The translations under genes and the position numbers were made by a program. Positions 1-50,444 of a stretch of 64,000 nt of DNA are shown here, in pieces. The stretch covers positions 52,978,951 through 53,042,950 of the forward strand of contig NC_053138.1 in assembly GCF_016808335.1 (NCBI RefSeq), in the 5' to 3' direction. The stretch's first letter is position 1. Each line of letters begins with the position of its first letter. Below the pieces are notes generated by a model. The model ran no database searches and was not told the origin of the DNA. It saw only the letters and a list, made by a program, of their open reading frames with translations. The DNA comes from Panicum virgatum (Eukaryota > Streptophyta > Magnoliopsida > Poales > Poaceae).

Positions 1-323
1 CGACGGGGACGACAACGGAGACGGCGATGTGATCTACTACTCGTACTGCAACATCAAGGCGGCCGGCGTTCTGACTGACATCGACAACATGGGACGGCCA
101 CGGTCGAAGCCCACCGTGGTGCTCTCCCTTAACTGGGGGATGATACATACGGCCATCGTCTGCGCAGAGCCGGGCGACACCCTTTGGCGAGCCGTCGCCA
201 TGAGCTGCGCCGGCGACATCGAGTGCGAGCTGCCGGCAATCCATGGCGGCCTCGCCGTGCAGGGCCGCTTCTTCGTCCCCAACCGCGCCGGAGACGTGCT
301 CGAGGTGGAGGTCAGGCCACAGC
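1..323 (+). pseudogene. F-box/DUF295-type gene, middle part of last exon (arm 1)
   Basis: This is the central part of an F-box/DUF295-type exon. The frame starts at base 2 and matches the intact copy on the minus strand at 49148-50444 almost base for base. One visible coding difference is Ala for Asp just before the residues MSCAG. The upstream exon and the F-box motif lie left of the window edge. The reading frame is cut at 323 by the CACTA element C1 and resumes at 10434 after the AGC target-site duplication. A transcript reading into C1 would stay open to a stop at 806-808, adding roughly 160 residues coded by CACTA subterminal repeats. The family acts as substrate adaptors of SCF ubiquitin ligases, but this copy is most likely non-functional. 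Confidence 0.9.
321..323. repeat. Left target-site duplication (AGC) of CACTA C1
   Basis: AGC precedes the left C1 terminus and is repeated at 10434-10436 after the right terminus. The intact F-box copy at 49148-50213 has a single AGC at this point, so deleting C1 plus one AGC restores the coding frame exactly. A 3-bp duplication is the CACTA norm. Confidence 0.97.
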
Positions 324-900
324 CACTACCGGACTCAGGTACTTTGCCGAGTGTCACAGACACTCGGCAAAGGCAGAAAAACACTCGGCAAATTGTTGGC
401 CGAGTGTGGCACTCGGCAAAGCGCACACGGCCTTTCTTCTACCGGCAAAGCCGGCTTTGCCGAGTGCCTTTTCACGGGCACTCGGCAAACCTTTACCGTG
501 TGCCAAGTCGCACTCGGCAAAAAAAAGTTGAAACGGGACGGACGGACGGACAGGTGAACTGGCGAACGGGACGGCGAACTGGCGAACGGGACGGCCGAAC
601 GGGACGGGTCGAAAACTTTGCCGAGTGCCATATGCTCGGCACTCGGCAAAGATTCAAACTTCGCCGAGTGCCAACCTGGCCGCACTCGGCGAAGTTTGGG
701 TTTTTGCCGAGTGTCAGGTGTCTGGCACTCGGCGAAGTTTGGGTCTTTGCCGAGTGCCAGTCGTCTGTCACTCGGCGAAGTTTCAAACTTCGCCGAGTGC
801 CAAGGTAATTACACTCGGCAAATACGTTTTCCAGGAAATAGAAAAATGGTTGCTTTGCCGAGTGTCAGGGTAAAAACACTCGGCAAAAGCTTGCTGTTTT
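324..900. repeat. 3' subterminal repeat array of C1
   Basis: About a dozen copies of a ~12-bp motif (TTTGCCGAGTG or CGCCGAGTG, both orientations, usually as facing pairs) lie between 338 and 886. They are interrupted by a short GACGGACGG/GGCGAACGGGACGG simple repeat at 536-606. In En/Spm such repeats bind the element-encoded TNPA-type protein. The motif contains no stop codon in any frame, which explains the many spurious open frames here. Confidence 0.9.
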
Positions 901-1187
901 TTTATATTTTTTCTGTTTTTATGTATTAACCACATTCATCGTCACAAAAAAAAACATATATACATTCCAGACAAGCGTTACAGTATATATATGGCACATC
1001 CATCACATAATAATGCAAATATCTCACGCTGTGTCGCATGAATATCACAAATAGCATAAGTCCAACATCGATGGTATAAGTGTAACGTTCAACAAGCACA
1101 AGTCCAACTAATTAAACAAGTCTAGTCCAACAACAACAAGCCCGTAGAACAAATATCATAAACAACTCTAAATTAGCTAGGTGGCCA
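900..1187. other. C1 internal 3' non-coding stretch
   Basis: AT-rich sequence between the 3' subterminal array and the last exon of the Transposase_24-type gene. It presumably contains the 3' UTR. I see no further gene or repeat in it. Confidence 0.5.
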
Positions 1188-3931
1188 CTACGACGCTGCA
1201 CGTGCCGGTGAATGCTCGTCCGGAGGCTCATTTGACCCCCAATCGATTGATTCTGCAAAAAAAAATATTTTAACTTTTGGCATGGTGATGCATAGAGCCA
1301 CTATCTGAACAAGGTAAAATACAATAAAAATGCAGGCCGTATATATTGCATCAAACACAAGTATTATTTGCAATGCATCTGAACCAGTATTAGCTTGATA
1401 AAAGAAGGAAAAAATAAAAGGAGTACTGAGATTATACTACTTGTCCATCATGTACGATCGTTCTAAACTTCCACTAATTTTCCAAGTGTGGCTGAAAGAT
1501 CAGTCCTGGTGCCTCCTAATCATACGTAATTAAACAGCAATATATAGTCACGAATTTACTGTCTAATTTGTGGGAAATTACATTGGCAGCCTAGCTAATC
1601 TCTAGTATATAGCACGAGAGATCTTGGGAAGGATCATGTAGCACACGTGTTCGATCAGCCAACCACTAAGTATCTCAACACTCCACTAAGTGAGTCTAGA
1701 TGTTCTTTCAGATATAGCACATGATATATTGACATAAAGTATCTCAAAATTTGAATATATATGTGCAAGCAAAGTAAATCTATATATCATACTCACAGGA
1801 GTGCCTGTAGTGCCAGATGGAGGAAAGATAGACGGAATGCCTAGCGGTGGCAGCGGTGGTGGAGGCCAGGCCATCGTTGGCGGCGGTTGATAGTTGATTG
1901 TCGCGCCAAGGCCTTGGAGATATGAGAACATGGTCTGCATCTGTTGTTGCGCGGCCTGTCGCTCAGCAAGAAGCGCCTGCTCCATCCTCTGCCGCTCCTG
2001 CATCCGCTCTTCCTGCCACCTGCGCTCTTGCTCCTGCCTTAGCGTCCGCTCCTCCTCCAGCCTCGCCTCGATCTCCTCCCGCCTCTTCGTCTCTTCGTCC
2101 ATCCGGGCCTATAAGATTTCACCCAAATGTTACAATGCGAACAAAATATAACTAACAGCAACGAACGACAAATGGAGCAGAAATAACCTGGATTGCACGC
2201 ACGCTGGCCACTGAAGTCTCAGGCCGTGGGCGTATTGGCGGAGTCGAGTCGGTGGTCCTTGCCCGAAGCTGAGAGAGAGTCGGCGTACTGGCTGTGTCGA
2301 CAAGGCTGTTGGCGATCCAGTAACGGCCGTGCTTCTTCCCTCCTCCTGCCCTCATGATGGCTTCTCCAGAAAGGGGCTGGGTGGCCGGATCCCATGTGTC
2401 CCCATGGAGTGCCTTTCCCATCTCCGTGTACTCAGTGATGCGCGTGTGGACGCTCGGGTTGCTGTACGCCTCGGGTGGATCCGCCGGGTTGTAGGAGACG
2501 TCGGACGTCGCCCTGCCCTTGTGCGCCATACAGTATGCCTGGAAGTCATTGCATTCCTGGTCTTCATGTGACCCCGACTGCAAGCAAAGCGAAAGAATAC
2601 AATGATTAGTGAGAATGCAGAATTTAGAGTTTGAAAGTACCAAAAAGTGTAATGACTTACCCAAGCATCCCTGTACTCGGGAAGGCCTCGGCTGTCTTGA
2701 TGGTGTGGCGCACCTTGCATCAACAAGCGGCGCTCCCGGCATAAGTTGTGCCGCTGAATCCACTCCTCGCTAAGCCACATGTCCACCATCATTTCCCAGC
2801 ACGCGCCCTTGCCAGCACACCAGTTCGGAGGCACCTACATGTAATGGAAGCAAAGTGGATGACATTTCCGAAAATGAAATTCAAAAGAAATGAGTAGTGA
2901 TTTCGTCATTTACCCTCAAGTATTGTTCCCGCGTGAGAAACATATTTCTTGCTACGTCCTTGCCGACCTTCCTTTTTTCCACATCGGCGTAGTAGGTAAT
3001 TACGGCCTGAACACGCGCCTCGTAGTGCATGTCCTTCACTAGTTTGCGACATGCTGTGTCAGCCACCTAAGCCGCTATGGCCTCATATCCTGGCTCGCAC
3101 CTGAAGAAATCCTGCATAGACTCGATAATTGCAGTCAATATTCAAAGAGTTTCAAATATATGGTAACTATTCACCAATATAGTGCGACGACTTACCCAAA
3201 ATTCTCCCACCACTCGTCTCGCCTTGTTGCCGAAGGACCTCCCTTCCCGATCTTCTGCATCTGGGACGGCGATGTAGTGGTCCCACGTGTATGCCGGCTC
3301 CAGATTCCCGGCATGCATCACCAGCCCAGGGAAGAGCTCCCTGCATAGGGTTCCCAGGATGCCGTTGGGCTTCCTTTTGTGGGCACCCGCCTGCACGAGC
3401 ATCCAATACCTGTAAAAGTGTATAACATAAAGTATTAGTATCTTGTCATTTTGAACATATGAATTGAAAAATAAATGCCATTGTGTATAACATAAAGTAT
3501 TACCTGTCTGGTACCGGTCGAATGATCGGGCGTCTCGCAAGAGGTATCGGCCGCTGCGGCAGTTGCGACAGTCCTCGCAACCACACCGCCCTCGTATCTC
3601 CTGCTGCCTCCTCCTCCTCCTCCTGGTCCTCCTCCTCCTGTCTCGGCTCCTCCTGCTCCCGCACCTCCTCCTCCTCCTCCTCCTCCGCCGCCGCCGCCGC
3701 CGCCGTCAAATCTGGAGGTGTCCTCTCCCTCCTGCTTCTTCTCGTCCTCCCCTGGTATCCACCACCTGTCTTACCTCCTCTCGTTCTCCCTGGCCCTCGT
3801 CCCCAACGCCTCCTGGACCCCTCTGAGACATTGGACCCCCCTGCTGCACTGGACCCCTCAGGAGCCTCTTGCTCTCCACCACTACTCCTGTACAAGGCGC
3901 TCAGGAAACCAATCTTGCCCCCGCCTGGCAT
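1188..3931 (-). pseudogene. C1 second gene: Transposase_24 (Ptta/En/Spm) DNA-binding-type protein
   Basis: Likely exons on the minus strand, all with GT-AG borders, are 3504-3931, 3196-3409, 2914-3111, 2661-2834, 2188-2577, 1797-2108 and 1188-1252. Exon 1 begins MPGGGKIG and codes a low-complexity acidic Glu-rich and Arg-rich N-terminus. Exons 2-5 code the conserved Transposase_24 region (motifs NGILGTLCRELFPG, TWDHYIAV, GKKHGRYWI). Exon 6 codes a Glu/Arg/Gln coiled coil followed by a Pro-rich tail. In CACTA elements this protein family is thought to bind subterminal repeats and assist the tnp2 transposase. Exon 3 has an in-frame TAG (complement of 3067-3069) where related copies read through, so the protein is probably truncated unless the stop is bypassed. 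The family call is firm; exact splice sites are inferred. Confidence 0.82.
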
Positions 3932-4209
3932 TTCGAATCAATAACCTGCAATCAATAATTGTAAATGAATCAGCAAAAATGAACAATATGTACTTAACAA
4001 ATTATGCAAAATAAACAATAAATATGCGCCATTTTTTAGAAGAGACTCCGATTCGTTCTAGGTCGGAGACCTTGAGCGACGCCAGAATAGACGAACAAAT
4101 TGCCTGTGTGAAATATGATCAAGGGGTTGGATGCTGCTTAGTGCAAACGCAAGAAGATGTTAAATGAGATGCTAAATCGTGGAACATCATGAACACGTTA
4201 AATGAGAAC

Positions 4210-6750
4210 TTACCCTATGTACGGCTCCACCTCAGAAAGGTTGGTCAACAAATAAAGCATGATACGACGCCACTCTTCATGGTTCAGGGTCTTGTACCTC
4301 GCATCACTTGCACTTCCAAGTTGCCCTCGGAAAATACTGAGACTCGATTCCTTATCGCCAGCATTGTAACAAGGAGGTGGATTATGCACGCTGGGAAGCT
4401 TCTCACCATAGTATTTAGTCGTGAAGTTTGACACCTCCTCCAAAATGTATGCCTCAGCAATCGAAGCCTCAATTTTGCATTTATTCTTACATTTCATTCG
4501 AAGAACCTTCTGGCATCTTTCAACTGGATAGCACCAACGGAACTGCACAGGCCCTCCCATTCTTGCCTCATAAGGCAGATGCAGAAGCAAATGTTGCATT
4601 GGATTGAAGAAGGCTGGTGGAAAGATCTTCTCCAACTTACAGAGCAACACGGGAGCCATTTTTTCCATGTCCGCAATAATAGCCCGAGATAACTCCTTAG
4701 CACAAAGCTGACGGAAAAAATTGCTCAACTCTGCTAGCACGAGCCATACATTATCAGGTAAGTAGCCTCGAACCATTACCAGAAGAAGCCGCTCAATCCA
4801 TATATGGTAGTCATGACTCTTTAGCCCGTTGATTCGCATAGTAGTCAAGTTCACACCCCTCCTAAGATTCGTTGCATATCCATCAGGAAATTGTAACTTT
4901 TGGATCCACTCTAGTGCTTCTTTCTTCTGGGCCCTCATGAGGACGAAGTCGGCCTGTGTCTTCTTCCATTTCCTCCCGGGTCCAGGAGTCCTCATTTCGT
5001 ATCTTGGTCTATCGCACAACATTGCCAGATCCACTCTTGCCTTTACGTTGTCCTTTGTCTTATCAGAAATATCCATGACTGTTCCAAAAAGTGCCTCCCC
5101 CCAATTCTTTTCAGTATGCATCACATCAATGTTGTGTGGAAGCAGAATATCATCAATATAAGGGAGCCTCCACAGCCCAGACTTCTGAGTCCAAGCATGT
5201 TCCTCACCGTACCCAACAAAACCACCGCCATCGTTGACTCGGAGAGTGTCTATCTGAGCATGAATCGCAGCACCCGTCATGATCGGTGGTGCAAATTCTG
5301 TAATTTTTACACCTTTCGTGAAGTTCTTAACGTCTTGTCTAAAAGGATGGTCAGCGGGGAGGAATTGTCGATGTTTGTCAAACGACGAATACTTACCCCC
5401 CTTCCTCAACCAGATGAACTGCAGAGCTGCCTTGCATGTTGGACATGGGAACTTCCCGTGAGTACACCAGCCACAGAATATGCCATACGCGGGTAAGTCA
5501 TGCAGGGAGAATTGGTACCAAACATACATTCTAAAATTTGTCTTTGTTGCTCGATCATAGGTCCACACCCCTTCGTCCCATGCCTTGACCAAATCATCAA
5601 TCAGAGGCTCCATGTAAACACTCATTTTATTCCCCGGGTGCTCTGGAATAATCAACGACACGAATATGGACTGTCGTTGAAATAGGACCCCTGGAGGGCG
5701 ATTCAGAGGGATAACAAACACAGGCCAGCATGAGTACGAGGCGGCCACCATCCCATAAGGATTGAACCCATCTGTTGCAAGCGCAATACGTACATTACGA
5801 GCTTCATTAGCCTTGTCATGATGAATCCTATCAAAATTCTTCCATGACTCACCATCGGATGGATGCACCATCTTGTCAGGGTTGTATCGAACACCTTTCT
5901 TGTGCCAGGTCATCTGTTGCGCGGATTCCTCGGTCATGAATAGTCGTTGGATCCTCGGAATGAAAGGAAGGTAGCGTAGGATTTTCACGGGAATCGTGAG
6001 CTGCTTCTTAGGCTGACCATCACCAGAGTCCACTTCGAGGAACCTAGAGGCTTTACATTTCGGACAGTAAGCAGCTTTCTCATGCTCCTTCCTAAATAAG
6101 ATACACCCATTTGGACAAGAATGTATCTGCTCATATGGCATCTTAAGTGCACCGAGAATTTTCTGTGCCTGATACATTGACTTTGGCATAATGTGATTTT
6201 CTGGAAGCATGCTTCCAAACACGGTCAACAGACTGTCGAAGGCGTCTCGGCTCAGGCTAAACTGAGACTTCAAGGCCATTAGTCGTCCGATGCCATCCAG
6301 CTGAGAAACCTTTGTATGACCGTGAAGTGGTTTCTGTGCAGCCTCCAACATCTCGAAATACACCTTTGCGGATGCCTCTGGCTCCTCCTCCTGCAGTCGT
6401 TCACCGAAATGTGCTTCATGATAGTCATGTAACATGTCTCCAACCCCACCATCAGCATCACAATCATCGATGCGTTGCCTCACAACCTCGTCCCTCATAC
6501 GGTGGCCTTCACCATGAAAGATCCACCGGGTATAGTCCGGCGTAAATCCATACTTGCAAAGATGTTGGCCCATAACCTTCTTCGTTTTCCGTTTCTTATT
6601 TCCACATATGTTGCACGGACACCACAAGAAACTCGATCCTTCAGCCTGACTCCACGCGGCTTCCAAAAAATCATTGGTCTTTCGAATCCATTCATCGGTC
6701 ATGGTAGCCTGACTTGGACGGCCCGTGTACATCCAATGACGGTCATCCAT
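4210..6750 (-). CDS. C1 tnp2-family CACTA transposase (TNPD-like)
   Basis: A single uninterrupted frame of 846 codons begins MDDRHWMYTGRP. Domains in order: an N-terminal Transpos_assoc zinc-finger-like region (about residues 1-85, Cys pairs in WCPCNICG); the tnp2 transposase domain (about 165-560, with CPNGCILFRKEHE, CPKCKASRFLEV, NVRIALATDGFNP and HNIDVMHTEKNW); and a DUF4218-type region (about 660-780, with FFNPMQHLLLHLP and YPVERCQK). tnp2 proteins catalyse excision and insertion at CACTA ends. No stop or frameshift is visible. The final codons overlap a good splice donor (AGG|GTAAGT at the stop), so the real gene may continue into 3' exons that I could not identify. The ATG at 6750 was chosen because it opens the conserved Transpos_assoc motif. 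Confidence 0.92.
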   Translation of the reverse strand: MDDRHWMYTGRPSQATMTDEWIRKTNDFLEAAWSQAEGSSFLWCPCNICGNKKRKTKKVMGQHLCKYGFTPDYTRWIFHGEGHRMRDEVVRQRIDDCDADGGVGDMLHDYHEAHFGERLQEEEPEASAKVYFEMLEAAQKPLHGHTKVSQLDGIGRLMALKSQFSLSRDAFDSLLTVFGSMLPENHIMPKSMYQAQKILGALKMPYEQIHSCPNGCILFRKEHEKAAYCPKCKASRFLEVDSGDGQPKKQLTIPVKILRYLPFIPRIQRLFMTEESAQQMTWHKKGVRYNPDKMVHPSDGESWKNFDRIHHDKANEARNVRIALATDGFNPYGMVAASYSCWPVFVIPLNRPPGVLFQRQSIFVSLIIPEHPGNKMSVYMEPLIDDLVKAWDEGVWTYDRATKTNFRMYVWYQFSLHDLPAYGIFCGWCTHGKFPCPTCKAALQFIWLRKGGKYSSFDKHRQFLPADHPFRQDVKNFTKGVKITEFAPPIMTGAAIHAQIDTLRVNDGGGFVGYGEEHAWTQKSGLWRLPYIDDILLPHNIDVMHTEKNWGEALFGTVMDISDKTKDNVKARVDLAMLCDRPRYEMRTPGPGRKWKKTQADFVLMRAQKKEALEWIQKLQFPDGYATNLRRGVNLTTMRINGLKSHDYHIWIERLLLVMVRGYLPDNVWLVLAELSNFFRQLCAKELSRAIIADMEKMAPVLLCKLEKIFPPAFFNPMQHLLLHLPYEARMGGPVQFRWCYPVERCQKVLRMKCKNKCKIEASIAEAYILEEVSNFTTKYYGEKLPSVHNPPPCYNAGDKESSLSIFRGQLGSASDARYKTLNHEEWRRIMLYLLTNLSEVEPYIG

Positions 6751-6863
6751 CCTCTAAACCGGAGTGAGAATAAAAATCAAATGCATCTACGTGTTGTCCC
6801 TACATTCTAATAGGTGAAGGTAGGTCCTAATCCCACCCGAGGATGCGTACATACGGTCAGTTT

Positions 6864-7008
6864 TCATGGTCCACTACCATCCGAGACAAAATTTCGGCAG
6901 CACCTCCCCGCTGTTCTCCAAATACACGTCCCGAAAGGGAGATTGTGTATCCGGAGAACAACGGGGAGGTGATGCCGAGACTCTGTCTCGGATGGGAGTT
7001 GATCATGG
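6864..7008. ncRNA. Long imperfect hairpin upstream of C1 tnp2 (candidate small-RNA precursor)
   Basis: Bases 6864-6927 and the reverse complement of 6945-7008 align over ~63 bp with about ten mismatches, several of which would be G:U pairs in RNA. The intervening loop contains the mini-hairpin TCCC-GAAA-GGGA. The whole would fold into a ~145-nt rod capped by a GAAA tetraloop. It lies ~110 bp upstream of the tnp2 ATG, in the leader or promoter side. Rice miR820 is an established case of a microRNA precursor inside CACTA elements; this sequence is not obviously the same. Whether it is transcribed or diced is unknown. Confidence 0.5.
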
Positions 7009-7009
7009 T

Positions 7010-8740
7010 AACTATCCGTATCTACGCATCCTCGGGCTGTCCAAATAACGTGGACAATTCGAAGGAGATATAATTATAGATATGCAAAGATCCGCATATC
7101 TCAATTGTATCTCTTCCGAATGGGAGACGCCTAACTAGGTTACATGAACTACGAGGTGCTAGATATGCAAAGACGGTGGCGGTGCTAGATATGCAAAGAC
7201 GGTGGCGGTGCTTACAACGGGTCGGCGGTGTAGGCGTGGCCGGCTTGGTGTGGACTCGCAGTTCAAGCTTCTCGTCGAGCACGTCGCAGGCGGACGCCGC
7301 TACCAGCCTATATTTTGTGCAGTCAGAACAAATAAAAGGTTAAGCATCATGACTAGCAAGAAAGCAAAATCATCAGCGGAAACTACTAAAGCATTGAGGG
7401 CACATTGAACACGACTTTCTCTGTTGACATAATATCCACCTTTGCATTAATTGAACACGACTATCGTATGCATATGAAACAGCAATGATACAAATCAGCG
7501 CTTATACATACAAAACAGTACCTTTGCATTAATTGCTCGGTCAGTATTAGTCACTAAGACATGATGTCCTGAGACCTGATGTTGTTAGAATCTGATAAAT
7601 GCTACTGATTGAGCTAGAGTTTAAAGAAAGTCCCAGGAAGGAGGTGACATCAAAGTTCAAAAGTCCCAACTTTCGACTACACATTCAAATTTCCATAGGC
7701 TCAGGCTGTTACTTAAAAGTTTCCTTACAAGGTATAAGGCTGCTATTTAGCATAGAACATATAATACATGCACCTATGGTCTACTCTTCCTAATGTGTTT
7801 TGTGACTTTGTGTAATCATGTGCATCAGCGCTAATAAGCAAACACATGCTAGGACATGCCATTGGTGTTACTTCAGTCATCTACATCTTGAAAAAAGAAA
7901 GGCAAGTTATTCTTCAAAATTAACATGAAAATGACAAAGGTGCATCAAATTTATAGTAAATCAACAATTTTCAGGATACATGGTTCCTAGTGATGCATGA
8001 CAGAAGACCGTCTTGGGGCCCGGCCTCGTCTCCTAACTACACTAGACTACTGGAGTATGATGAATCGCAGGTTAGCATCACCTAACCTTAGTGTTGAATA
8101 CATTCAAGGACAACAACCCTAAGTAGTAAGTAGTAGTAAGTATACCAAATTAAATTGAACTCCAGAAAAGTAGTAATAAGTATAAAATAATCCATATATT
8201 CGAGGAATTTGCAGGCTCCACACTGATGTGACACCAACAAATATGCAATACAAACTACTAAAACTCTACCAGATTAGTATTCTAAAGCTTGGACATGGAC
8301 CTGTATTTACCAAGAGCAAGTATCTGTTACTATGACCGGAGTGGACAGCCGCTGCCGGGGAGCCGAATCCGCCAGGCCGCCTCCGCCGCCGCCGCCGCTG
8401 GACGGCTGCGCCGCCTTCGCGTGTGCCGCGCCGGCGCCTCCCCTCGAGACTCTGGAAGGAGAAGGAGAGAACGAGGATTCGTTCCGGACCTAATGAGGTG
8501 GGGTTTCGTTCCGGGCCGGAAAGGGGGAGGAAAGGTCCGGATGGGCCAGTTTTCAATCCGGACCAGGCTCCGGGGACGGCGAGCCAGGGCGTGGAGGCGG
8601 CGGGGCAGGGCGCGGCGCGCCGGGGCGGGGCGTGGAGGCGGCGGCGCGGCGGAGTGGAGGCGGCGGCGTGAGTACGGGTGTGTGCGGCGTGAGTGAGTGC
8701 GCGTGTGTGCGGGTCGGTCACTTAGCTGGGGGCGGGGGCA
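7010..8740. other. C1 5' non-coding region
   Basis: No convincing gene lies between the hairpin and the internal subterminal cluster. A 21-23 bp unit around GATATGCAAAGACGGTGGCGGTGC is tandemly repeated near 7161-7210. Bases 8330-8700 are GC-rich, with open frames on both strands that have low-complexity Arg/Pro/Ala composition and no recognisable domain. I see nothing else in 7210-8330. Confidence 0.5.
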
Positions 8741-8875
8741 GAAACTTTGCCGAGTGCCAGATCACGGCACTCGGCAAAGACACGACCGCTTTGCCGAGTG
8801 CCCTGATTTGGCACTCGGCAAAGCCGCTACCGCTTTGCCGAGTGCCACGCTGGCAGCACTCGGCAAAGCCAGGAT
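8740..8875. repeat. Inner subterminal-repeat cluster of C1
   Basis: Six TTTGCCGAGTGCC/GGCACTCGGCAAA motifs arranged as three facing pairs. The cluster lies ~1.5 kb inside the right terminus and is separated from the terminal array by ~960 bp of AT-rich DNA. It may mark an older 5' boundary of the element, displaced by insertion of the AT-rich block. Confidence 0.8.
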
Positions 8876-9838
8876 TTCATTTCAAAATCCTTCAATTCAA
8901 AATTTATTTAAACATATTTCTTTGATTATAATTTAACATTTCATTACTAAACTTATATTTCAGACAAATATATCATGCTTCAATGATAAAAATTATATTA
9001 TTTCAATCACTTTTAGCTATATTTCAATTTGTATGAACTAATTCACTACATTTTTCAAAAAAATTAAAAAATACGAAAACATTTCGAAAAATAACCAAAC
9101 TTTAACATAAACCAATTTATGAGGTCTATTGCGTATATAAAAAATTTAACATACTTTAGCCAAAAAAATTCCATTATTTCATGCAGTATAAGTTCAAATT
9201 CAATTTACATAGTACTAAAAAACTTTAATATTATCAAATAGGCTCAAAAAATAATGAATATTTACCATAAACCTATCCATCATGTCCATTGCCTACACAA
9301 AAAATTTTGAAGTCAAAACTCAATTGGATGGTCCGTTGGACTCAAAAACATAACTGACTCATTCAAATGTCTTTGGATCCTCTTCAGGATTCCTCATCCT
9401 GTAACCAACGTATGTGATAACTTTTTTGAAATCTTCTCAAATTTTTTCCACAGCCTCTACTTATGATATCATGCTTTCACTACAAATTTCATAATTTTTG
9501 GACTTCATTTGTGTTTTATAGAATTTAAAATCTATTCGGCCACAAATTCATTGCTATGTTTCCTGAATAAGATATTTGATTTTTTTTCTTTAAATTCTTG
9601 TACAAACCCTCAAATTTGACTCAATAACATGAATATAATTTTTCCATTAATTATCAACACTTTTGACAACATTTGGCAGTTCAAATTTGAATTATACACA
9701 AAATATTCTTGTAATCAAATAAATAATCTAAATATAGTAAACATAAAGGATAATTTGCCAAATTTAAATATGATGTCTTTCACATAGTATGAGAACGGAG
9801 GAAAAAGTTTGGAGGTCGTTGGAGAAAGTTTTTGTATT
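8876..9838. other. AT-rich block between the two 5' subterminal arrays of C1
   Basis: Strongly AT-rich sequence with no open frame of note, no tRNA-like sequence and no recognisable inverted ends. The base composition differs sharply from the GC-rich DNA on its left. Origin unknown. Confidence 0.5.
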
Positions 9839-10433
9839 TGTTTGCCGAGTGCCAAAGACGACACTCGGCAAAGTTTATTAAATGCCTAGTGCCTGTTCCA
9901 TTACACTCGGCATTACAATATGTTTGCCGAGTGCCCCAATTTGGCACTCGGCGAAGCATAACGGTAACGGCCGTGGAAAAATGGGAACGTTCGTGGCAAT
10001 AGCGTAACGGCCTTGGGGAGCTGGCGGGTGCGGTGCACGTGACAGCGTTTGCCGAGTGTCGACTGTAGGGCACTCGGCAAAGATCTTGTTGCCGAGTGTC
10101 CCCATGTAGGCACTCGGCAAAGATCTTGTTGCCGAGTGTCCCCATGTAGGCACTCGGCAAACAAAAGCATCGCCACCGTAACGGTCGTCTGCGGGTCGTC
10201 TGTTGGTGCACGTGACGCTCTTTGCTGAGTGTCAACTGACTAGCACTCGGCAAAGTGTGTCTTTGCCGAGTGCCATAAGGCTGGCACTCGGCAAAGAGAT
10301 AGTCCGCCGAGTGTTATTTGTTCGCCGAGTGCATGTTTTTTGGCACTCGGCAAATAGTATCTTTGCCGAGTGCTCGAGATTATGCACTCGGCAAATATCC
10401 GGGCACTCGGCATATGTCGGTTTTCCGGTAGTG
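9839..10433. repeat. 5' subterminal repeat array of C1
   Basis: More than a dozen TTTGCCGAGTG-type motifs in both orientations, ending in the terminal inverted repeat. A ~40-bp unit (GCCGAGTGTCCCCATGTAGG plus CACTCGGCAAAGATCTTGTT) is perfectly duplicated in tandem at about 10091-10160. These are the presumed binding sites of the element's accessory protein. Confidence 0.9.
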
Positions 10434-10759
10434 AGCCGCGCCTGACATACGTTGCCAGGCAGGCCGGCGACGAGGCCCAGAGCGGCTTGAACCAGAGGTC
10501 CTACCTGGTCCCTTCTGGCAACGATGTGGGTGCCGGAATGCTCCTGCTGCGCACCTGGGGGCCTGGCAACGTCCACTACCAGGCCTTCACGGTGGATCTT
10601 GGCAACAGAAGGTTTGCGCGGCATGAGATGGGTGGCACTGACACCACCGTGTTTCTGCCATCCGTCACTCTACGCAGTTCTGCATTCCCTAATGTGGTGG
10701 CCAATATAGCCTACCTGAAGAGGCACATGAAAGCGCTGATGCAAGGGCTTTACATATGA
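10434..10759 (+). pseudogene. F-box/DUF295-type gene, 3' end of last exon (arm 1)
   Basis: After the AGC target duplication the F-box frame resumes at the residues RLTYVARQAGDE and ends with MQGLYI and TGA at 10757-10759. It matches the intact arm 2 copy nearly perfectly; one visible change is Phe for Leu in GNRRFARHE. The fragment belongs to the exon begun at 1-323 and is separated from it by 10.1 kb of CACTA DNA, so it cannot be made as part of a normal protein unless C1 excises or is spliced out. Confidence 0.92.
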
Positions 10760-35008: not shown

Positions 35009-35229
35009 CATATCTATCTAATATACGTAATGGAGATATCTATCTAACATATGCATGTGTGAACCTGATTGTGAAGTGTATGTAAGCATGTGTGAAAGCA
35101 ATTGTGGTAGCTTATTCTATCAATTTGATGCTGATCGGTTCGATTTCTGAACCTAATGTATATACATATCTAGTGTGTGAATATAGCATGTTATCGTTCT
35201 CTCATGAATGGTACAATATCTTTGCTCTA

Positions 35230-40790: not shown

Positions 40791-40794
40791 TCAC

Positions 40795-41155
40795 AAGCGA
40801 ATTCCTGGCGCGCTGGTAGGGCACCCTTTTCTCATCTCCGTGAACCGGGTTCGAATCCCCACTACTCAATGCATCTCTTTTTTCTCGGAATTACAATACG
40901 CGATACTTGTATAAATAAAGAAATACCAGTCAATGTCAGAACATAAGATGCAGCCCAGTTGGTAAATGTTTTGCGCGTCTAATGCTCCAGGCCACGGTTC
41001 GATTCCCTATTGCCTCACTATTTTTCTCTTAGCAGATCTATTTTCGCAGTAGTTAGATAAAACCAGATAATAACTCGCTTAGTCACAAACAGAGGCGCAG
41101 CATACTGGTAACACTTGCGTTGGTTCGAATCCTGGTGGCGCCGTTATTTTGCCGA
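40795..41155 (+). other. Tandem cluster of three tRNA-like modules in C3
   Basis: Module 1 (about 40810-40880), module 2 (about 40946-41030) and module 3 (about 41090-41158) each have an A-box-like stretch (GCGCGCTGGTAGGGC, GCAGCCCAGTTGGTA, GGCGCAGCATACTGGTAAC). Each then has a perfect B box: GGTTCGAATCC, GGTTCGATTCC and GGTTCGAATCC. Runs of T6, T5 and T4 follow, which would serve as Pol III terminators. Module 3 can pair GGCGC with GCGCC as an acceptor-like stem. None forms a complete tRNA with a clear anticodon arm, so I do not call tRNA genes. Confidence 0.6.
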
Positions 41156-41695
41156 AGTGGTGTGGTGGTATTTGCGCTCTCCTTGTTTCCACTTTTTATT
41201 TAACACTAACCTTTTTTTCGCACACCAATTTTTTTCCCAATCACATATGCATACTGCGGGAGGATAGGTTTAATGCCAAATTCAAATTTTTTTCAATCAC
41301 TTTTTTTTATTCAATCACATATGCATGTACCACGGGAGGATAGGGAGCGGAATAGGACTTAGTAGAATGTTGAAATTTGGTTTGAGGCTTTTAGTTTGCT
41401 TTTCATGTGCGCTGACTAGGCTGCCACGTAAGCATCAAATAAGAGAAGAAAAAACTTGAATTAAAAATGAAAATGTCAAAACATATAGTTAAAATAACTA
41501 TGACGATTTTTTATGATATTAATGTTAAAACATCATGTTTTGTGGGCTCAATTATGACGAATTCGATAAAACGTTATAGAGTTCTAAGCCTAGGGTCCAT
41601 ACCTTCAAATTCGTCATAGATTGTGTACAATAGTGACGCTCCATTAAAATGTCATAAAATTTTCGTCATAGATCACCATATTTCTTGTAGTTTAT

Positions 41696-42352
41696 GCAAC
41701 TCTGCATTTTGACTGTGGTATTGTATCGACTGTTGTATGGAGTTGTATCGACTATTGTATGGATTTGTATCAACTATTGTATGGATTTGATTCGAGTATT
41801 GTATGGATTTGTATCGAATATTATCTGGATTTGTATCGATGTATATATGAACTGTATAAGCTTTGTATATTTGATTGTGGTCATATATACGCCATTAATA
41901 AAAAAACAGCCTGAAAGACACCTTTGCCGTGTGCCAGGGCCAGGGCACACGGCAAAGGTGCCATTGTTTGCCGTGTACCAGGGGCGTGACACACGGCAAA
42001 TGTGCCATTGTTTGCGGTGTGCCAGGGGCGTGACACACGGCAAACAGCCTCTTGTTTGCCGTGTGCCAGGCCGTTACGGCACACGGCAAACGCCCTTTTC
42101 AATGGGGTTCCGAGCACTGCACTTTATTTTGCCGTGGGCCCAGAAAAGCACTCGGCAAAGTGTTTGCCGTGTGCCCGAAATGTAGCACACGGCAAACAAG
42201 CTCTTTGTCGGCCGTTGTATGCCGTGCGCTGTTTGTCGTGTGTTATACTCGACAAACACTTTGCCGAGTGTAAACCTGTCTTTGCCGTGTGCCCCTGGCA
42301 CACGGCAAACATGCACAGTCCCGTGGTCTTTCTCATACCGGAGTATGTAGTG
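41696..42352 (+). repeat. C2 3' subterminal region with 22-bp minisatellite
   Basis: Bases 41720-41850 are a 22-bp minisatellite (unit around GTATCGACTATTGTATGGATTT, five or more copies). Bases 41930-42310 hold about a dozen TTTGCCGTGTGCC-type motifs and a few of the TTTGCCGAGTG type. Compared with arm 1, extra repeat pairs are present around 41965-42055 and 42236-42290. Confidence 0.88.
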
Positions 42353-45300
42353 TAGCCAACATGGCATTACGCTTCGCTGGAGCAACTTCAGATGTTGCAA
42401 CTTGTAGCCTACATACTCACCCTATGATCTACCTGTTGATTGGCAGGTGCAGGCATGCCATCTTAAGAAGTTGTGGACCAAGGGCTCCCTAACATTGGAT
42501 GGTGCTCACTTGTATACACACAGTCATCCCGGTTTACGTATGAGGTGAGTGTTATACTTCGCTCAGGTCCTTTTGTGATGCCAGTAGACATTGCGAATGC
42601 CTTTTTTTCTCCTTGGAGGACTACTGATCTTTTTTTTATGTGGCCTTTGTAGAAAAAATATGTTCAAGATCTTGCCAAGATCAAACATCCAGAAGATATC
42701 ACTTTTGAAGGTTCTTGTTGGCTAGATGCCCTCAGATGCAACCAAGTTGACAAACAATGATTGCAGAGACAAGGAAGGCGTTCACCCATGTACTTCAGTT
42801 TGAGATGCATCGCATCTTTTGAATTTTTCCTCTAGACGACTAGGAACAGATACCCTATGTTAGTACACAGAAGTATTATCCGCTAAGGATATTTTGCAAT
42901 CCAACTTTGGAGTTCAGTGGTTTTGCACCGATACATTTTTTAATGTATTTTTGGCGCTCGTTAAAATGCTTGTCATCATCCTAATCGTGAAAGCCTAAAT
43001 GTGAAAGGGAAAGAAGTGCGTCAGTCATCACTTTGAGTAACAGAACACCTCTCGACTAAAATCGTACTAGCTTTGCAAGCACCCCATATATTCTGCTCAG
43101 TACCACAGTATATTAAGTAAGTTGTCAACTAAAATCTTATCTCACATTATGGATCTGAAAAAACATAATGTCCTCTCTTAATATAAAGATGCGCAACTCT
43201 CCTGTGTGTTCGAGAAAAAAAACGTATGAGTCTTTACCATTAACTGACTTGAAGATCTGCAAAATAATGTTGACATTCTACTTGGAACCTGCAGAAATTC
43301 GATACAGATGAATTAGAATATTTTTCGAGATATGATTAACTGAAAGAAGATTAATCCGAAGTCAAAAAATAAGATAATAGTTCAGGTATGAATTTGCCAT
43401 ATAACGCTTAATTAGCAGGTCGGCTGCATTAACAGGTTTTCGAGCCGGAAGTTCGGATGCATGTTTATATATTTGTAAAATTGGTAAATGTGATGTCATG
43501 TTGTTTGTATATTTGTAAATATATTATTATAGCTAAATAACTTTATTATATGATTGCATTTGACTTTTAGTTATTTTTCAATATTCTTTGAATTCGAACA
43601 CGACCAATGGATGGATAGTACTGTAGAGCTCAGGTACATGTAGCAATTCCAAAAGAATAATCGGTAAATAACAAATTAAATAAAACTGGATATGGGAGAA
43701 ATGAGGAAACACTTTGGTACCGGTTAGGAAGACCAATCTGTATCAAAGGGGCTTCTCGCATGCGTCAGCATGGCAGTCTCTGAGGTACCGGTTGGTCATT
43801 CCAACTGGTACCTAAGGTGGTCTTGAGCACAGAATAAAATACCTGGTGTCCTAGAGCAACCCCAAAGGTCCCGGTTTCGAGGTACCGGTTGAAAAACTTT
43901 TCTACCGGTCCCTAAGGATCTTTCCAACCGTTGCCCATAACCCTTTTTCTAGTAGTGCTAGGCTAAGTAAGGTTAAAGCCCAAACTAGAGGTTACGTTAA
44001 GTTTAAGCTTCAGGTTATTGCAATTCAAATATAAACCACACAAAAAAGTACAATTGCAAACCAAATAAAATCCAAAATCGCACCGGCAAAACCATCTTAA
44101 AAATTTAAATTTAAGTTCGGTGTAGTAGCGTTGACTCCATTATTCTACGTGCTGGGGACCTGATGGTTCATGACACAGATGACGAGGGATTAGATCCGGT
44201 ATGGATGAGACGCTCTCTCCAAATATTGAATGACCACAAGAAATAGAAGAGACAAACTGCACTATTCATTTTCAACATGTTACATTAGATTTTTCCGCAC
44301 AATACCTGTCTGTTGTTTTTGTCCATGGTATCTAATTATAGCACCAACAAATTGTTGGTTACTACTCACTATTCTAATAATATAATAAGGTCATGACCTT
44401 AGCTACATGTTTACTGTCCCTTTTGTCATATTTATAGATTAAAATAATGGTTCCAGAAATTGCTGCCGGTTTGTAGTTCATGGACATAGACTATTTATAC
44501 TATAAGAACAAAACTTCATATAATGTTGGCAAAAAAGTATTTTAGTGAATGCTTTGCTGCAAACTTATATCAGATCAATTTCCTTTTTTCAAAAAATGTG
44601 CTAGGCTATTATTTTTCATAATGTTGTGGTACATTTTAGATCTCATATATAGCACTGACATGGGATGATAAACAAAGGAACCTCTTTTTGGACACTCATT
44701 TATTTACATAAAAACTATCCACATATATCCGAAAATCTCTTTCCTGACTTAAACTATATTAGTGCTCATATAATCTGAGAATAAAAATTGTAATGAGAAA
44801 CAACTCCATGCTTGTAGCCCTGCAGTGATATATGCGCCGGAGCTGGTATATATACTATTTATATAAATCTGGTGACCTTATCCAAGAATTAAACAGTGTC
44901 TTCAGCTTCTTCAGAAACACATTTGGTTGATGGTAAACAACAAAACCCGTCAAATATGTAAACAATATTTATTTCCATTTGGACAGACAAAAAGAAAACC
45001 TGACCGTAATTTGATTTTTTTGGGAAAAAAAAACTTATATAGTATGTAAAACAGAGGACAGGATAGAATATTGGATTGATGGTAAACTATTGGATTCAGT
45101 CATCCGAAGAAATAGCAGCAATGCAAGGACATAATATGCGAGGAGTATTAAATCATGTAACACTAATCAATAGTATGTATGTAAAATTGTTCCTGGTTAA
45201 CTTCCTGTAAGCTTAAATAGTATGTTTATAAATCAGCCATTCTACTAAACAATGTAATGAGTGACATGAAACTGGTTATATTTTCAGGACTACTTCCTGT

Positions 45301-48300
45301 GAGATTACAATGTACATTACACAAAGAAATGTTACATGATGCAGACACTAGATAACATCAAGGCAAGTTATATAGCTTCAGGACAATTATTATGATACCT
45401 CGTATTCCTCAATCAAGCAAAAACGTTCCATCACGCACACCTACATCATACTCAACAAAGATTTGATAAACCCTAAACTCTAAAACACAGACGGTAAACT
45501 AATGAAATATATATCGACTCAAAACTTTTGTTTTCCATATCGGAGTTCGAGACCATTTCTAAGTGTCCAATAATAAGTGAAATTTGACTAGCAAATTAGT
45601 GATCTAGTGAACCATCCAAATCTCTGATTTATACATTGCCACCCAGCAAATTAGGGACTTGTTTGCTGCACAAACAAGATTTTGTTAGGCTGACCTTTAG
45701 GAAATTCACGATTTATGGCTAGGGGGAGCAACATATATATAGAACTTTATGTCTTCGTTTAAGCTCAAAGATGCATGACAAAACAAAACTTGTATAGTGA
45801 GTGCAGATCAGAATAGTGTGTGCTTTTACACGCATGACCGAAGTGCAATGCCTGAGCAAGAGGCAACCAATAGCCAAGGTATTTGACCTTGAGAACATTA
45901 AGGAGAAATTTATATAGTTGCATGCCTCAGATGACTAGCGAAAAAATATGCATAGCATGTCAAGCAAAGTTGTCAATCAGGTATGTAATGATCCATAAAT
46001 AGCATCGGTAAGAACACTATTGGTTGCTAATAAACACACAAAGTATGCAGTTTTAGCTATGATTTAAGTACAGTTCTAAAAATTTAGAGAGGCGCATTAT
46101 TATTACCAAAGTCATCACTTCACTAATTAAATTTGACAGCATATAATAAATTGCTGGCTTGCTGCTATATACTTTTATCCTCCTTCCTACCGTGCAGAAA
46201 GAAGATTGCCTCTCCCAGCAAATGTGATCCAAAAACTCAATGGCCAAACGGCAAAAACATAATTTTAGGAAAAGAGTGATATACCAATCATGGGATAGAC
46301 CCAGCCAAAGGAAACCCATATGTTGTGTAAACTGGATAATTGGGAGTAGCATTAGAAGCAAAATAACAGATGTTTACCCAGCAAGCAAAATAATAGTTTC
46401 TAAAAATCAGATTATAATCAGAATACAGTGAATTTATTACATATCAAAATAATTGAGTGGACTTGCCAGTTATCAAGCATTTATACAGTAATGTTATACA
46501 TAAAGATTTCTAGGTGCCATGTATTTTTTATTCAACATAGCAAAACTATGCATGTAATGGTAAAACATTTTCCTTTACCACACAATACAGCACACATAAA
46601 TTAAAAGCATTTTAGATTGGCTGCATTAGCTTCTTGCACTACAAGAGAAAGGCCTATCGGCTGGTCGGGCCAAAAATACGGGGCATTGTTGCACCGGTAC
46701 TGATTCATATGTTGCATCAAAGATACAGGCTACATCAATTAAAATCATTTGCTAGAAAAAGACTTATACCCATATTCGTCATACTACGTAAAACAGACCA
46801 ATTGAATTTACTGTAACTAATATATGTAGTTTGGGGTTGCTACAGATCAACAGTAAAATACTGGCAAACTGGAGGTTAATGCAATAAAACATAAAACGTT
46901 GTTGTAACTCCAACACAACCATCACTTACAGAAAACTTACACACTGCTGCAAAACCAAAATGATAGCTGTACAAACAAGATTTTGTTAGACTGACCTTAA
47001 GCAAATTGATGATTTATGGCTGGGGGTGCAACATATATGTCTTTATTTAAGTTCAAAGATGCAGAACAAAACAAAACTTGTGTAGTGAGTGCAGATGAGA
47101 ATAGTGTCCTTTAGACGCATGATCAAAGTGCAGTGCCTGAGAAAGAGGCAACCAATAAACAAAGTATTTGACCTTAGAACATTAAAGAGAAATTTATGTA
47201 GTTTCATGCCTCAGTTGACTAGTGAAAAAATAATATGCATAGCATGTCAAGCAAAGTTGTAAATGAGGTAGGTCATGATCCATAAAAAGCATCGGTAAGA
47301 TCACTATGGTTGCTAAACACAAAGTATGTAGTTTTAGCTATGATTTAGGTACAGTCACTCCACTAATTAAATTTGATAGCATATAATAAATTGCTGGCTT
47401 GCTGCGATACACGTTTATCCTCCTTCCTACCATGCAGAAAAAAGATTTAAAATATATTGCCTCTCCCATCAGTAAATGTGATCCACAAACTCAATGGCCA
47501 AACGGCAAAAACATAAATTTAGAAAAAGAGTGATATACCAATCATGGGAGAGACCCAGCCAAAGGATACCCATATGCTGTGTAAACTGGATAATTGGAAG
47601 TACCATTAGAAGCAAAATAGCAGAGGTTACCCAGCAAGCAAAATAATAGTATCTAGACCAGATTTTAATAAGAATATAGTGAATTTATTACATATCAAAA
47701 TAATTAAATGGACTTGCCTGTTCTCAAGCATGTATACAGTAATGTTATACTTAAAGATTGGTAGGTGCCATTTATGTCAATATTTATTGAACATAGCAAA
47801 ACTATGCATGTAATGGTAAAACATTTTCCTTTGCCACAATACAGCACACATAAATTCAAAGCATTTGGATCGGCTGCATTAGCTTAACTTCTTGTATAAG
47901 CATATGTTGCAGCAAAGATACTGGAGGCTACATACATCGACTAAAATCATTTGTTAAAAAAGAATTATATCCATGTTTGACATATTGTGTAAAGCGGACC
48001 AATTAAATATAATGTAACTGATGATATCTGTAGTTTGGGATTACTGCAGATCAACACTAACATACAGGCAGACTGGAGGTTGATGCAATAAAACACAAAT
48101 CCTTGTTGTTACTCCAGCACAACCATCACCTTAGAAAACCTACACACTGCTGCAAAACCAAAATGATAGTGGTGCATCAAGAAAAATAACATCGTAATGA
48201 TGATGCAACAATAACCATCACTGGTGAAAAATGATAATTGAAATTCTAAAATAAATGTTGACAGAAAACACAAACCTTAAGATGCCTTTTAATTTTCAGG

Positions 48301-49147
48301 TAGATCTAAAAGCACTTCGAATTTGAAATCCAGTAGAGAAGAATCCAGAACCCAGAATTTTGCAAATCTGAAATCAACAAAAAATCCAGACTCCATAATT
48401 AATCATTAACTAATATTGTTCTAACTAATTCTTCAAGCGACCGAGGTTGCAAGTTAATGGAGAACCATGGTTAGTTGGTTAATATAATTCTGAGGGCAAG
48501 AATGATAGAGTATTGGGTTACTTACTCATCCGAGTAAGTTTAGCTATACAAGTAATTAAGCGGAGTAATCCCAAAGGCATGTCTCAAGACAGTAAGATAG
48601 CTAATCACTCGATCTGCTTTTGTAACCGATCCACTTTAATTTGTCAGCGTATTGGATTCAATCTGAAACCACAAAATCACACCACAGTATTCAGGAGAAT
48701 CTACAGTTCAGAAGAACATTTAATTTTGGTCATTTGAAAATTAGCATCCACTCACAGTAACTTGCATATACATAGATCACCTACGAGAGTGTGATTATTC
48801 AACTGCTAATGATGTCCACTTGCAACTTAAATTACGAGTATGAACTAACTGTATCCCAAAGCTTTGTCATTTCTACATCAGAATGTAGCCGGCCCGCAAA
48901 TTTCATAGATGGTATATATACTCAATGCACGGGCATCATTCAGATTTCAGAATTGCACAGGAGGAAAAAGCACTCTCACGAATTTCAATCAAGAAGACAA
49001 GCAATTTATAAGTCTTACATGTTCAACAGCAATCTGAAATTGCACCAGTTTCATGCACCAATATTTCATATTTCTCAAAACAAGTCATTAATAATTCATA
49101 AAAAGAAGTCTGGGGATCAATAATCAACTACATCCACTTGGAGTGAA
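42353..49147. other. Non-coding 3' flank of F-box gene, arm 2
   Basis: Inverse copy of 10760-17722. It contains the LINE tail (about 43170-43225), the ACCGGT CACTA-type end (about 43705-43957), the two tandem 1.2-kb units (about 45675-48180) and the 66-bp micro-element (46637-46702). No gene is seen. Confidence 0.7.
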
Positions 49148-50444
49148 TCATATGTAAAGCCCTTGCATCAGCGCTTTCATGTGCCTCTTCAGGTAGGCTA
49201 TATTGGCCACCACATTAGGGAATGCAGAACTGCGTAGAGTGACGGATGGCAGAAACACGGTGGTGTCAGTGCCACCCATCTCATGCCGCGCAAGCCTTCT
49301 GTTGCCAAGATCCACCGTGAAGGCCTGGTAGTGGACGTTGCCAGGCCCCCAGGTGCGCAGCAGGAGCATTCCGGCACCCACATCGTTGCCAGAAGGGACC
49401 AGGTAGGACCTCTGGTTCAAGCCGCTCTGGGCCTCATCGCCGGCCTGCCTGGCAACGTATGTCAGGCGCGGCTGTGGCCTGACCTCCACCTCGAGCACGT
49501 CTCCGGCGCGGTTGGGGACGAAGAAGCGGCCCTGCACGGCGAGGCCGCCATGGATTGCCGGCAGCTCGCACTCGATGTCGCCGGCGCAGCTCATGTCGAC
49601 GGCTCGCCAAAGGGTGTCGCCCGGCTCTGCGCAGACGATGGCCGTATGTATCATCCCCCAGTTAAGGGAGAGCACCACGGTGGGCTTCGACCGTGGCCGT
49701 CCCATGTTGTCGATGTCAGTCAGAACGCCGGCCGCCTTGATGTTGCAGTACGAGTAGTAGATCACATCGCCGTCTCCGTTGTCGTCCCCGTCGCCCAAAG
49801 GTTGCGTCAGTTGCACCGTGGACATCATCGGAAGGTCGGTGAAGGCCATGGTGAGCGGGTTGAGCAGGCATACAGTGTCGGTGAGCGAGTGCCAGAGCAC
49901 CAGGAGGCCCTCCGTGTTGCCGTGGTGGGTGTACTCCTTGGGATTCGGCAGTTCGATCCGGAGCGTGGCGCCGGTCCGCACGTTGACGAAGCGCTCCGGC
50001 TTGCCGTCCCGGCGGAGCTTCTCTTCAGCGATCAGCAGCCACTGCCGGGGGAAGAAGCGGGGATCCAGGGTGCTGGGGTCCGTGGTGGAGCTCCTCCACG
50101 GCTTGCAGACGGCCCTCAGGCGGATGTACTCCGCCACGTCGTCGGACAGGAGGTCGCCGGCGATCTTGCCGACGAGATCGGGGAGGAGATGGGCCCAGTC
50201 CCTCACTTCTACCCTGGAGGAGAAACACACAAACGACGGTCAGATTCAGAATTGCAGATCTCTGCTGCGTTGCAAAAAGGGGGAAATTTGAGCGGAAGGA
50301 GAAGAAGCATGGGTAGATTGGAGAGGAGCTAGCTTACTCTTCCAGGGAATCGTCGCTGCCGGTGACGGGAACGGGGACGGGGACGGGCCCTGCTCCGGAG
50401 GTCCGCCGGGCGGCGCGCCGTGGGCGCTTGTCGACGCGCGACAT
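49148..50444 (-). CDS. F-box/DUF295-type protein, intact copy (arm 2)
   Basis: Two exons, 50338-50444 and 49148-50213 (donor GA|GTAAGC, acceptor CTCCAG|GG), give 390 residues starting MSRVDKRPRRAARR. A short basic, Pro/Val-rich N-terminus is followed by an F-box-like helix set (WAHLLPDLVGKIAGDLL, then YIRLRAVCKPWRSS, about residues 41-90). A C-terminal region of the DUF295 or KIB-like beta-propeller type follows (GLLVLWHSLTDTVCLLNPLT; WRAVDMSCAG; FFVPNRAGDVLEV; ending MQGLYI). Such proteins recruit targets to SCF ubiquitin ligases; the target is unknown. No frameshift or stop is present. This is the uninterrupted counterpart of the arm 1 copy and shows the empty target site of C1. Confidence 0.9.

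What the first reader, a model, noticed from the sequence alone, without database searches (positions are those of the whole stretch)
1..49793. Near-identical 8.2-kb inverted duplication flanking a 23-kb segment with two host genes
Arm 1 (1-323 plus 10434-18329) and arm 2 (about 41590-49793) are inverse copies with long identical stretches. They enclose the eIF5B-like gene, the ureide permease and old repeats. Such arms can drive inversion of the enclosed segment by recombination, and read-through transcription could make long double-stranded RNA against the F-box gene. An assembly artefact joining two haplotypes in inverse order is an alternative.
Basis: partly seen in the sequence, partly recalled or inferred. 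Interest (0 to 1): 0.78.

Follow-up and report, generated by a model that had tools for sequence, protein, structure and literature searches.

The report
Switchgrass F-box gene copied in reverse
A stretch of (probably) switchgrass DNA carrying an F-box-like gene appears twice, in opposite directions, about 23,000 bases apart, and one copy was later broken by a jumping gene; this looks like ordinary gene turnover in a grass genome, with one odd divergence step at an old transposon's end.

Summary
The inverted duplication is real in the sequence. Arm 1 (1-323 plus 10434-18329) and arm 2 (49793-41587, reversed) differ at 85 of 8,004 compared sites. Arm 1 touches the window start, so 8.2 kb is a minimum. 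The 10,110-bp interruption (324-10433) is a CACTA transposon with AGC target duplication and tnp2-type ORF. It splits the arm-1 copy of a KIB1-4/F-box-like gene; arm 2 has an intact copy and the empty site. The spacer's eIF5B-like protein matches PVAP13_J683216 of Panicum virgatum, so the window is probably an unplaced switchgrass contig. Locus tags in sorghum, Digitaria and Eragrostis put eIF5B, ureide permease and F-box relatives close together: the spacer looks native. Divergence steps from 0.8% to 4.4% at 17740, the end of an older CACTA fragment that closes both arms (0 of 2,000 permutations as strong). Best reading: a recent local inverted duplication, then loss of one gene copy. The double-stranded RNA idea is weak. 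Haplotype mis-join is unlikely but untested; the genome search did not complete (8 of 8 requests).

The parts
1..323 (+). Arm 1, outer piece; part of the KIB1-4/F-box-like coding sequence; cut off by the window start
   Evidence: 99.7% to 49793-49470 reversed; matches P0001 residues 147-254
324..10433 (-). CACTA (En/Spm-type) transposon, 10,110 bp, in arm 1 only, so younger than the duplication; transposase ORF on the minus strand
   Evidence: Ends CACTACCGGA / TCCGGTAGTG, target duplication AGC at 321-323 and 10434-10436; Transposase_21/tnp2, DUF4218 and Transpos_assoc in one 847-aa ORF 4210-6753; arm 2 has the empty site
10434..18329 (+). Arm 1, inner piece (gene 3' end, about 7 kb without recognised genes, CACTA terminal fragment)
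41587..49793 (-). Arm 2 (reverse copy of arm 1 as far as the window allows)
18330..41586 (.). Spacer between the arms, 23.3 kb
   Evidence: genes by Pfam
49148..50444 (-). Apparently intact KIB1-4 beta-propeller / F-box-like gene of arm 2: exon 1 from ATG 50444 to a GT donor at about 50337, last exon to the stop at 49148
   Evidence: PF03478, E 3.3e-9; 360-aa P0001 99.4%; exon 1 like the start of P0002 of Panicum miliaceum
10437..10759 (+). 3' remainder of the arm-1 gene copy, separated from 1-323 by the CACTA element; the frame of 1-323 meets a stop inside the element at about 806
   Evidence: two amino-acid differences from arm 2 (215 D->A, 316 L->F, numbering of the 363-aa arm-2 ORF)
17723..18329 (+). 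Terminal fragment of an older CACTA element in arm 1 (CACTACATACTCCGGTA, then TTTGCCGTGTG-type repeats), ending about 90 bp before the eIF5B-like ATG
   Evidence: divergence step at 17740
41587..42352 (-). Same CACTA terminal fragment in arm 2
   Evidence: the new CACTA element matches 42309-42148 (72.7% over 165)
35693..35972 (+). Degenerate CACTA coding remnant in the spacer, in the orientation expected if the old element ran leftwards from 42352
   Evidence: tblastn with an ORF of the new element: 52% over 61 aa and 50% over 32 aa, E 9.7e-22; no tnp2 match in the spacer
18420..25095 (+). eIF5B-like gene, no break seen in the exons found
   Evidence: Pfam GTP_EFTU and IF-2; 91% to PAHAL_3G441900 over the full query, 100% (rounded) over 72% of the query to PVAP13_J683216; exon matches
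25274..27142 (-). Ureide permease gene copy with a frame-changing 13-bp tandem duplication at 25407-25432 and a second frame change between 26346 and 26307
   Evidence: PF07168; tandem repeat; frames against PVAP13_3KG438016
22063..23859 (.). Mutator-like element with 174-bp terminal inverted repeats and G+C-rich interior, within the eIF5B-like gene between exons
   Evidence: 92% inverted repeat; 9-bp TTTTATCTT on both sides
11734..14244 (.). Older tandem duplication, units of 1.2-1.3 kb, present in both arms

Best explanation
This is a recent local inverted segmental duplication in a Panicum genome, almost certainly switchgrass, at a locus where eIF5B-like, ureide-permease and KIB1-4/F-box-like genes are old neighbours. 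A segment holding an F-box-like gene, several kb of flank and the end of an old CACTA transposon was copied in reverse orientation to just upstream of the eIF5B-like gene (arm 1), most likely by ectopic repair or replication template switching in CACTA-rich DNA. Later a full CACTA element inserted into the arm-1 coding sequence, leaving arm 2 as the intact copy. Shown: the arms, their divergence, the insertion with its target duplication and empty site, the intact and the broken gene copy, the protein match to a switchgrass record. Inferred: direction of copying, mechanism, age (about 0.3-0.6 My from K2P 0.0080 of the F-box part, with recalled grass rates of 6.5e-9 to 1.3e-8), and the absence of a dedicated function.
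For: Arms inverted, 85 of 8,004 sites different. CACTA hallmarks and empty site. eIF5B-like protein 100% (rounded) over 72% of my joined query to the 646-aa PVAP13_J683216 [Panicum virgatum], longest record 84,875 bases. Locus tags, taken as order along a chromosome: Sorghum eIF5B 08G118000, permease 08G118100, F-box relatives 08G118600 and 08G118700; Digitaria 065912, 065903/065904, 065921; Eragrostis 01456, 01452, 01438. At the two amino-acid differences between the copies, relatives agree with arm 2: D in 5 of 5 and L in 4 of 5 proteins looked at (P0001-P0005; my pattern did not match the second site in P0005), so both changes probably arose in arm 1. CACTA remnants colinear with the new element lie on both sides of the arm-2 inner border.
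Against: No read, map or second assembly was available; the genome search did not complete. The contig seems to be unplaced in an outbred, haplotype-pruned assembly, where mis-joins and left-over haplotigs are more likely. The outer ends of the arms are not in view. One uniform event does not by itself explain the 5.5-fold divergence step. Continuity of the old CACTA element past 41587 rests on two weak matches about 6 kb apart; no tnp2 remnant was found in the spacer and no second terminus of it in the window. The neighbourhood is not uniform: in Stipagrostis and Urochloa decumbens the best F-box hit lies on another record than eIF5B.
Confidence: 0.72

Rival explanations
1. Assembly artefact: two haplotypes (or homoeologues) of one locus were joined in opposite directions inside one contig.
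For: The matching switchgrass protein bears the tag J683216 on an 84,875-base record, which I take to be unplaced; the AP13 plant is outbred and its first assembly held both haplotypes (PMC7886653 passages); 0.8% divergence could be allelic; a close switchgrass permease lies on another, chromosome-size record, PVAP13_3KG438016.
Against: No N in the window. Two alleles should both continue into eIF5B; arm 2 does not. Similarity decays near the border (10 of 146 sites differ from 18184 to 18329) rather than stopping abruptly in near-identical sequence. The arms differ by indels and a 10-kb insertion, which alleles could also do.
Confidence: 0.18
2. A variant of the best explanation, not exclusive of it: the inverted duplication is older, and its F-box part was later made alike by gene conversion between the arms, with the tract ending at the CACTA terminus.
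For: 26 of 607 sites (4.3%) differ inside the CACTA fragment against 59 of 7,397 (0.8%) outside; best change point 17740, 0 of 2,000 permutations as strong; changes other than CG/CHG transitions show the same excess (19 of 607 vs 47 of 7,397).
Against: Divergence over the remaining 7.4 kb is even (944 of 2,000 permutations reach the second change point), with no patchwork; faster mutation of silenced transposon DNA is a simple alternative, and CG/CHG transitions are also in excess (7 of 607 vs 12 of 7,397).
Confidence: 0.3
3. Functional hairpin locus: read-through transcription makes double-stranded RNA that silences the F-box-like gene family.
For: Long inverted arms contain coding sequence of the gene.
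Against: About 38 kb between the converging 3' ends, with two genes and repeats in between; arm-1 copy split by a 10.1-kb element with an in-frame stop. No transcript or small-RNA data were available. Known plant cases, from recall, have short spacers.
Confidence: 0.03
4. The arms drive recurrent inversion of the 23-kb spacer by recombination between them.
For: At least 8 kb of arms with identical runs of 599 and 584 sites.
Against: No second individual or haplotype was examined.
Confidence: 0.1

Closest known systems
Local duplication of KIB1-4/F-box genes in grasses
   Same: Close locus tags suggest local clusters in other grasses (Eragrostis 01250/01254/01257; Eleusine 5BG0439450/5BG0439470/5BG0439510; Sorghum 08G118600/08G118700); here one copy is intact and one decaying.
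   Different: Here the copy is reversed, lies across two older neighbours and ends inside a CACTA element.
CACTA (En/Spm) transposon
   Same: The element at 324-10433 has CACTA termini, a 3-bp target duplication and a tnp2-type transposase ORF.
   Different: Nothing unusual seen.
Sister chromatid transposition (maize Ac/Ds), which can leave flanking inverted duplications (PMC3744419, passages)
   Same: Inverted duplication whose inner edges carry transposon ends.
   Different: That mechanism pairs a 5' with a 3' terminus; here both inner edges carry the same terminus and 0.6 kb of interior, and the family is CACTA, not hAT.
Hairpin-type siRNA loci from inverted gene duplications (soybean chalcone synthase cluster, from recall; PMC3534067 seen only in listings)
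   Same: Inverted gene copies.
   Different: Much longer spacer, one copy broken, no small-RNA evidence either way.

Membership tests
Segmental duplication | At least 1 kb and at least 90% identity between two copies | tested here: met
   85 of 8,004 sites differ
Segmental duplication | Not simply a high-copy repeat | not testable with these tools
   Genome search unanswered 8 of 8 times
CACTA transposon (324-10433) | Termini beginning CACTA in inverted orientation | tested here: met
   First 10 bases of both ends identical, CACTACCGGA
CACTA transposon (324-10433) | 3-bp target-site duplication and an empty site | tested here: met
   AGC on both sides; arm 2 lacks the element
CACTA transposon (324-10433) | tnp2-type transposase | tested here: met
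   PF02992, E 8.2e-61, in an 847-aa ORF
Sister chromatid transposition product | A 5' and a 3' terminus of linked elements at the junctions | tested here: not met
   Both inner edges carry the same terminus, CACTACATACTCCGGTA
Hairpin siRNA locus | One transcript spanning both arms | not testable with these tools
   No transcript data; the 23.3-kb spacer argues against it
Hairpin siRNA locus | Small RNAs from both arms | not testable with these tools
   No small-RNA data held
KIB1-4/F-box gene | KIB1-4 beta-propeller domain | tested here: met
   PF03478, 37.1 bits, cut-off 27.4
KIB1-4/F-box gene | F-box motif at the N-terminus | tested here: inconclusive
   No Pfam F-box match at E 0.001 in the arm-2 ORF; of 55 relatives listed, P0031 carries PF00646

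The most novel reading that the evidence does not exclude
The two CACTA ends at the inner edges are different members of one transposon family (4.4% apart) that already stood near eIF5B and near the F-box-like gene. A transposase-made break at the eIF5B-side terminus invaded the F-box-side terminus and copied outwards through the gene by break-induced replication, so the copied flank (0.8%) is younger than the transposon ends that primed it. The duplication would then start exactly at a transposon terminus and be inverted because the two ends faced each other.
Probability: 0.15. Interest if true: 0.5.

Novelty: new member of a known kind. Interest (0 to 1): 0.3.

Why it matters
If genuine, it is a datable example of how fast-evolving grass F-box-type genes are copied and lost beside conserved neighbours, and the divergence step exactly at a CACTA terminus makes one testable case for transposon ends priming gene duplication. 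It also warns users of the reference that this contig carries a broken F-box-like copy and a frame-shifted ureide-permease copy.

Tried and rejected
Assembly fold-back (a chimeric or hairpin read) was rejected because the arms differ by 85 substitutions, indels and a 10-kb insertion. A single giant CACTA element bounded by 17723 and 42352, with eIF5B and the permease as cargo, was considered: the two termini face inwards, but the homology continues outside them for at least 7 kb, the flanking triplets are CTA and TAG and not a direct repeat, and eIF5B and permease tags are neighbours in other grasses, so it was rejected. Methylation-type mutation alone was tested and does not account for the whole step (19 of 607 vs 47 of 7,397 for other changes), though it may add to it.

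Pfam on 8 of the 39 ORFs (60 aa or more) listed for 41400-50400 found nothing (0 of 8; the same call held two ORFs from elsewhere, one with a below-cut-off match). Rfam: 0 matches at gathering score. Eight literature searches gave background; I saw no report of this locus in their listings, which is no proof of absence, as the lists were capped and the library lacks most subscription journals. Only PMC7886653 and PMC3744419 were opened, and only passages of them were seen.

The arms' outer ends, the copy number in the genome and the rest of the contig outside the window could not be examined.

Full report
Observation. Self-comparison of the window shows two long inverse copies: arm 1 is 1-324 plus 10434-18348 and arm 2 is 49793-41568 in reverse. 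A MAFFT alignment of the arms, with sites 318-324, one indel tract (14863-15060) and all sites beyond 18329 left out, gives 85 differences in 8,004 sites. The finding is therefore correct, with two limits: arm 1 runs off the window start, so the full arm may be longer than what is seen, and the last bases before 18348 are not reliably homologous.

The gap in arm 1. Positions 324-10433 are a 10,110-bp CACTA transposon. Its two ends agree in the first ten bases (CACTACCGGA), it is flanked by AGC on both sides, and arm 2 carries the same site without the element. One 847-aa minus-strand ORF holds Transpos_assoc, Transposase_21 and DUF4218. Because arm 2 is empty at this site, the insertion is most simply younger than the duplication. 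It falls in the coding sequence of a KIB1-4 beta-propeller gene (PF03478), and the interrupted frame meets a stop at about position 806.

The gene in the arms. The arm-2 copy looks intact: exon 1 from an ATG at 50444, a GT donor at about 50337, and a last exon ending at 49148. Its nearest listed relatives are P0001 (99%), Panicum miliaceum (82%) and Urochloa decumbens (68%). P0001 is listed without a source, which the tool uses for proteins of the window itself, but it differs from arm 2 at 2 of 360 residues, one of them the first. Over the 214 codons visible in both arms there are two amino-acid differences. At the first, 5 of 5 relatives (P0001-P0005) have the arm-2 residue; at the second, 4 of 5 do and my pattern did not match P0005. 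Both changes thus probably arose in arm 1, as expected of a copy no longer under constraint, but two changes are too few for a test. I call the gene F-box-like from recall of the family and because P0031, one of 55 relatives listed, has an F-box match; Pfam gave none in the window's ORF.

Where it is from. The eIF5B-like protein of the spacer agrees at 100% (rounded, over 72% of my joined query) with the 646-aa PVAP13_J683216 of Panicum virgatum, whose longest record is 84,875 bases. The window, 64,000 bases without N, is probably part of that record. The AP13 assembly paper (PMC7886653; only passages seen) describes an outbred plant, a first assembly with both haplotypes, pruning to one haplotype, joins marked by 10,000 Ns, and 97.2% of bases placed on chromosomes. 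That the letter J marks an unplaced sequence is recalled. The best named switchgrass ureide permease is PVAP13_3KG438016 (93% to my joined query), so the window's copy is a homoeologue, an allele or a further copy.

Native neighbourhood. Locus tags in three other grasses put the same gene types close together: Sorghum eIF5B 08G118000, permease 08G118100, F-box relatives 08G118600 and 08G118700; Digitaria 065912, 065903/065904 and 065921; Eragrostis 01456, 01452 and 01438. Panicum hallii var. hallii has permease 3G417600 beside a 40% F-box relative, 3G417700. These were picked from the listed hits; in Stipagrostis and Urochloa decumbens the best F-box hit lies on another record than eIF5B. That tag numbers follow the chromosome is an inference. 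The spacer is thus probably old locus, and the F-box-like gene is what was copied.

The inner edges. In both arms the last 0.6-0.8 kb begins with the terminus of an older CACTA element, CACTACATACTCCGGTA, followed by TTTGCCGTGTG-type repeats. With up to three mismatches this 17-mer occurs twice in the window, at 17723 (+) and 42352 (-), against 0.07 expected. CACTA-like DNA may continue beyond arm 2: the new CACTA element matches 42309-42148 and 36097-35719 in colinear order, and the second match is also seen in protein (35693-35972, E 9.7e-22). Against this, no tnp2 remnant was found in the spacer and no second terminus in the window. In arm 1 the fragment stops about 90 bp before the ATG of eIF5B. 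This suggests, weakly, that arm 2 is the original and arm 1 the copy.

The divergence step. The best single change point in the differences lies at 17740, just after the CACTA terminus: 0.80% outside and 4.4% inside, and 0 of 2,000 permutations did as well. Cut at 17723, the counts are 26 of 607 inside against 59 of 7,397 outside; CG/CHG transitions are 7 of 607 against 12 of 7,397, all other changes 19 of 607 against 47 of 7,397. Outside the fragment the differences are spread evenly (944 of 2,000 permutations reach the second change point). Part of the fragment is tandem repeats, where alignment is less sure; the last 146 sites (18184-18329), mostly outside them, still have 10 differences. 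Three readings remain: fast mutation of transposon DNA, gene conversion of the F-box part, or two different CACTA copies that primed the duplication. The data do not separate them without a third copy.

Function. Nothing points to a dedicated function. The two gene copies converge with about 38 kb between their 3' ends and one is split, so a hairpin RNA is unlikely. Inversion by recombination is possible given arm length and identical runs of 599 and 584 sites, but untested.

Artefact. A mis-join of haplotypes cannot be excluded without reads. Against it stand the lack of Ns, the differing flanks at both inner borders, the decay of similarity near the border, and the possible CACTA continuity at arm 2. 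I put it at 0.18.

Verdict. A probably genuine, young, local inverted segmental duplication with one decayed gene copy: a new member of a known kind, of modest interest, with one feature (the step at the CACTA terminus) worth a follow-up. The odds of the conversion variant overlap those of the best explanation.

Noticed in passing
22063-23859: Element with 174-bp terminal inverted repeats (92%), G+C-rich interior and 9-bp flanking repeats TTTTATCTT between exons of the eIF5B-like gene: Mutator-like, possibly carrying gene fragments.
   Followed up: partly
25407-25432: A 13-bp tandem duplication shifts the frame near the end of the ureide permease copy; a second frame change lies between 26346 and 26307, unless a very short intron is there. 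The copy is probably damaged.
   Followed up: partly
51185-64000: A further CACTA-type element on the right: tnp2-related pieces at 59589-62964, an ORF at 53590-55341 without Pfam match that looks TNPA-like from recall, and a possible terminus CACTACTACAAAAACG at 51185; no partner terminus was found in 62500-64000.
   Followed up: partly
11734-14244 and 45665-48169: Tandem pair of 1.2-1.3-kb units, 82-83% alike, shared by both arms and so older than the inverted duplication.
   Followed up: no
31743-32204: 231-bp tandem duplication (97%) in the spacer, near an AT/AG microsatellite; a related diverged stretch lies at 34486-34854.
   Followed up: no
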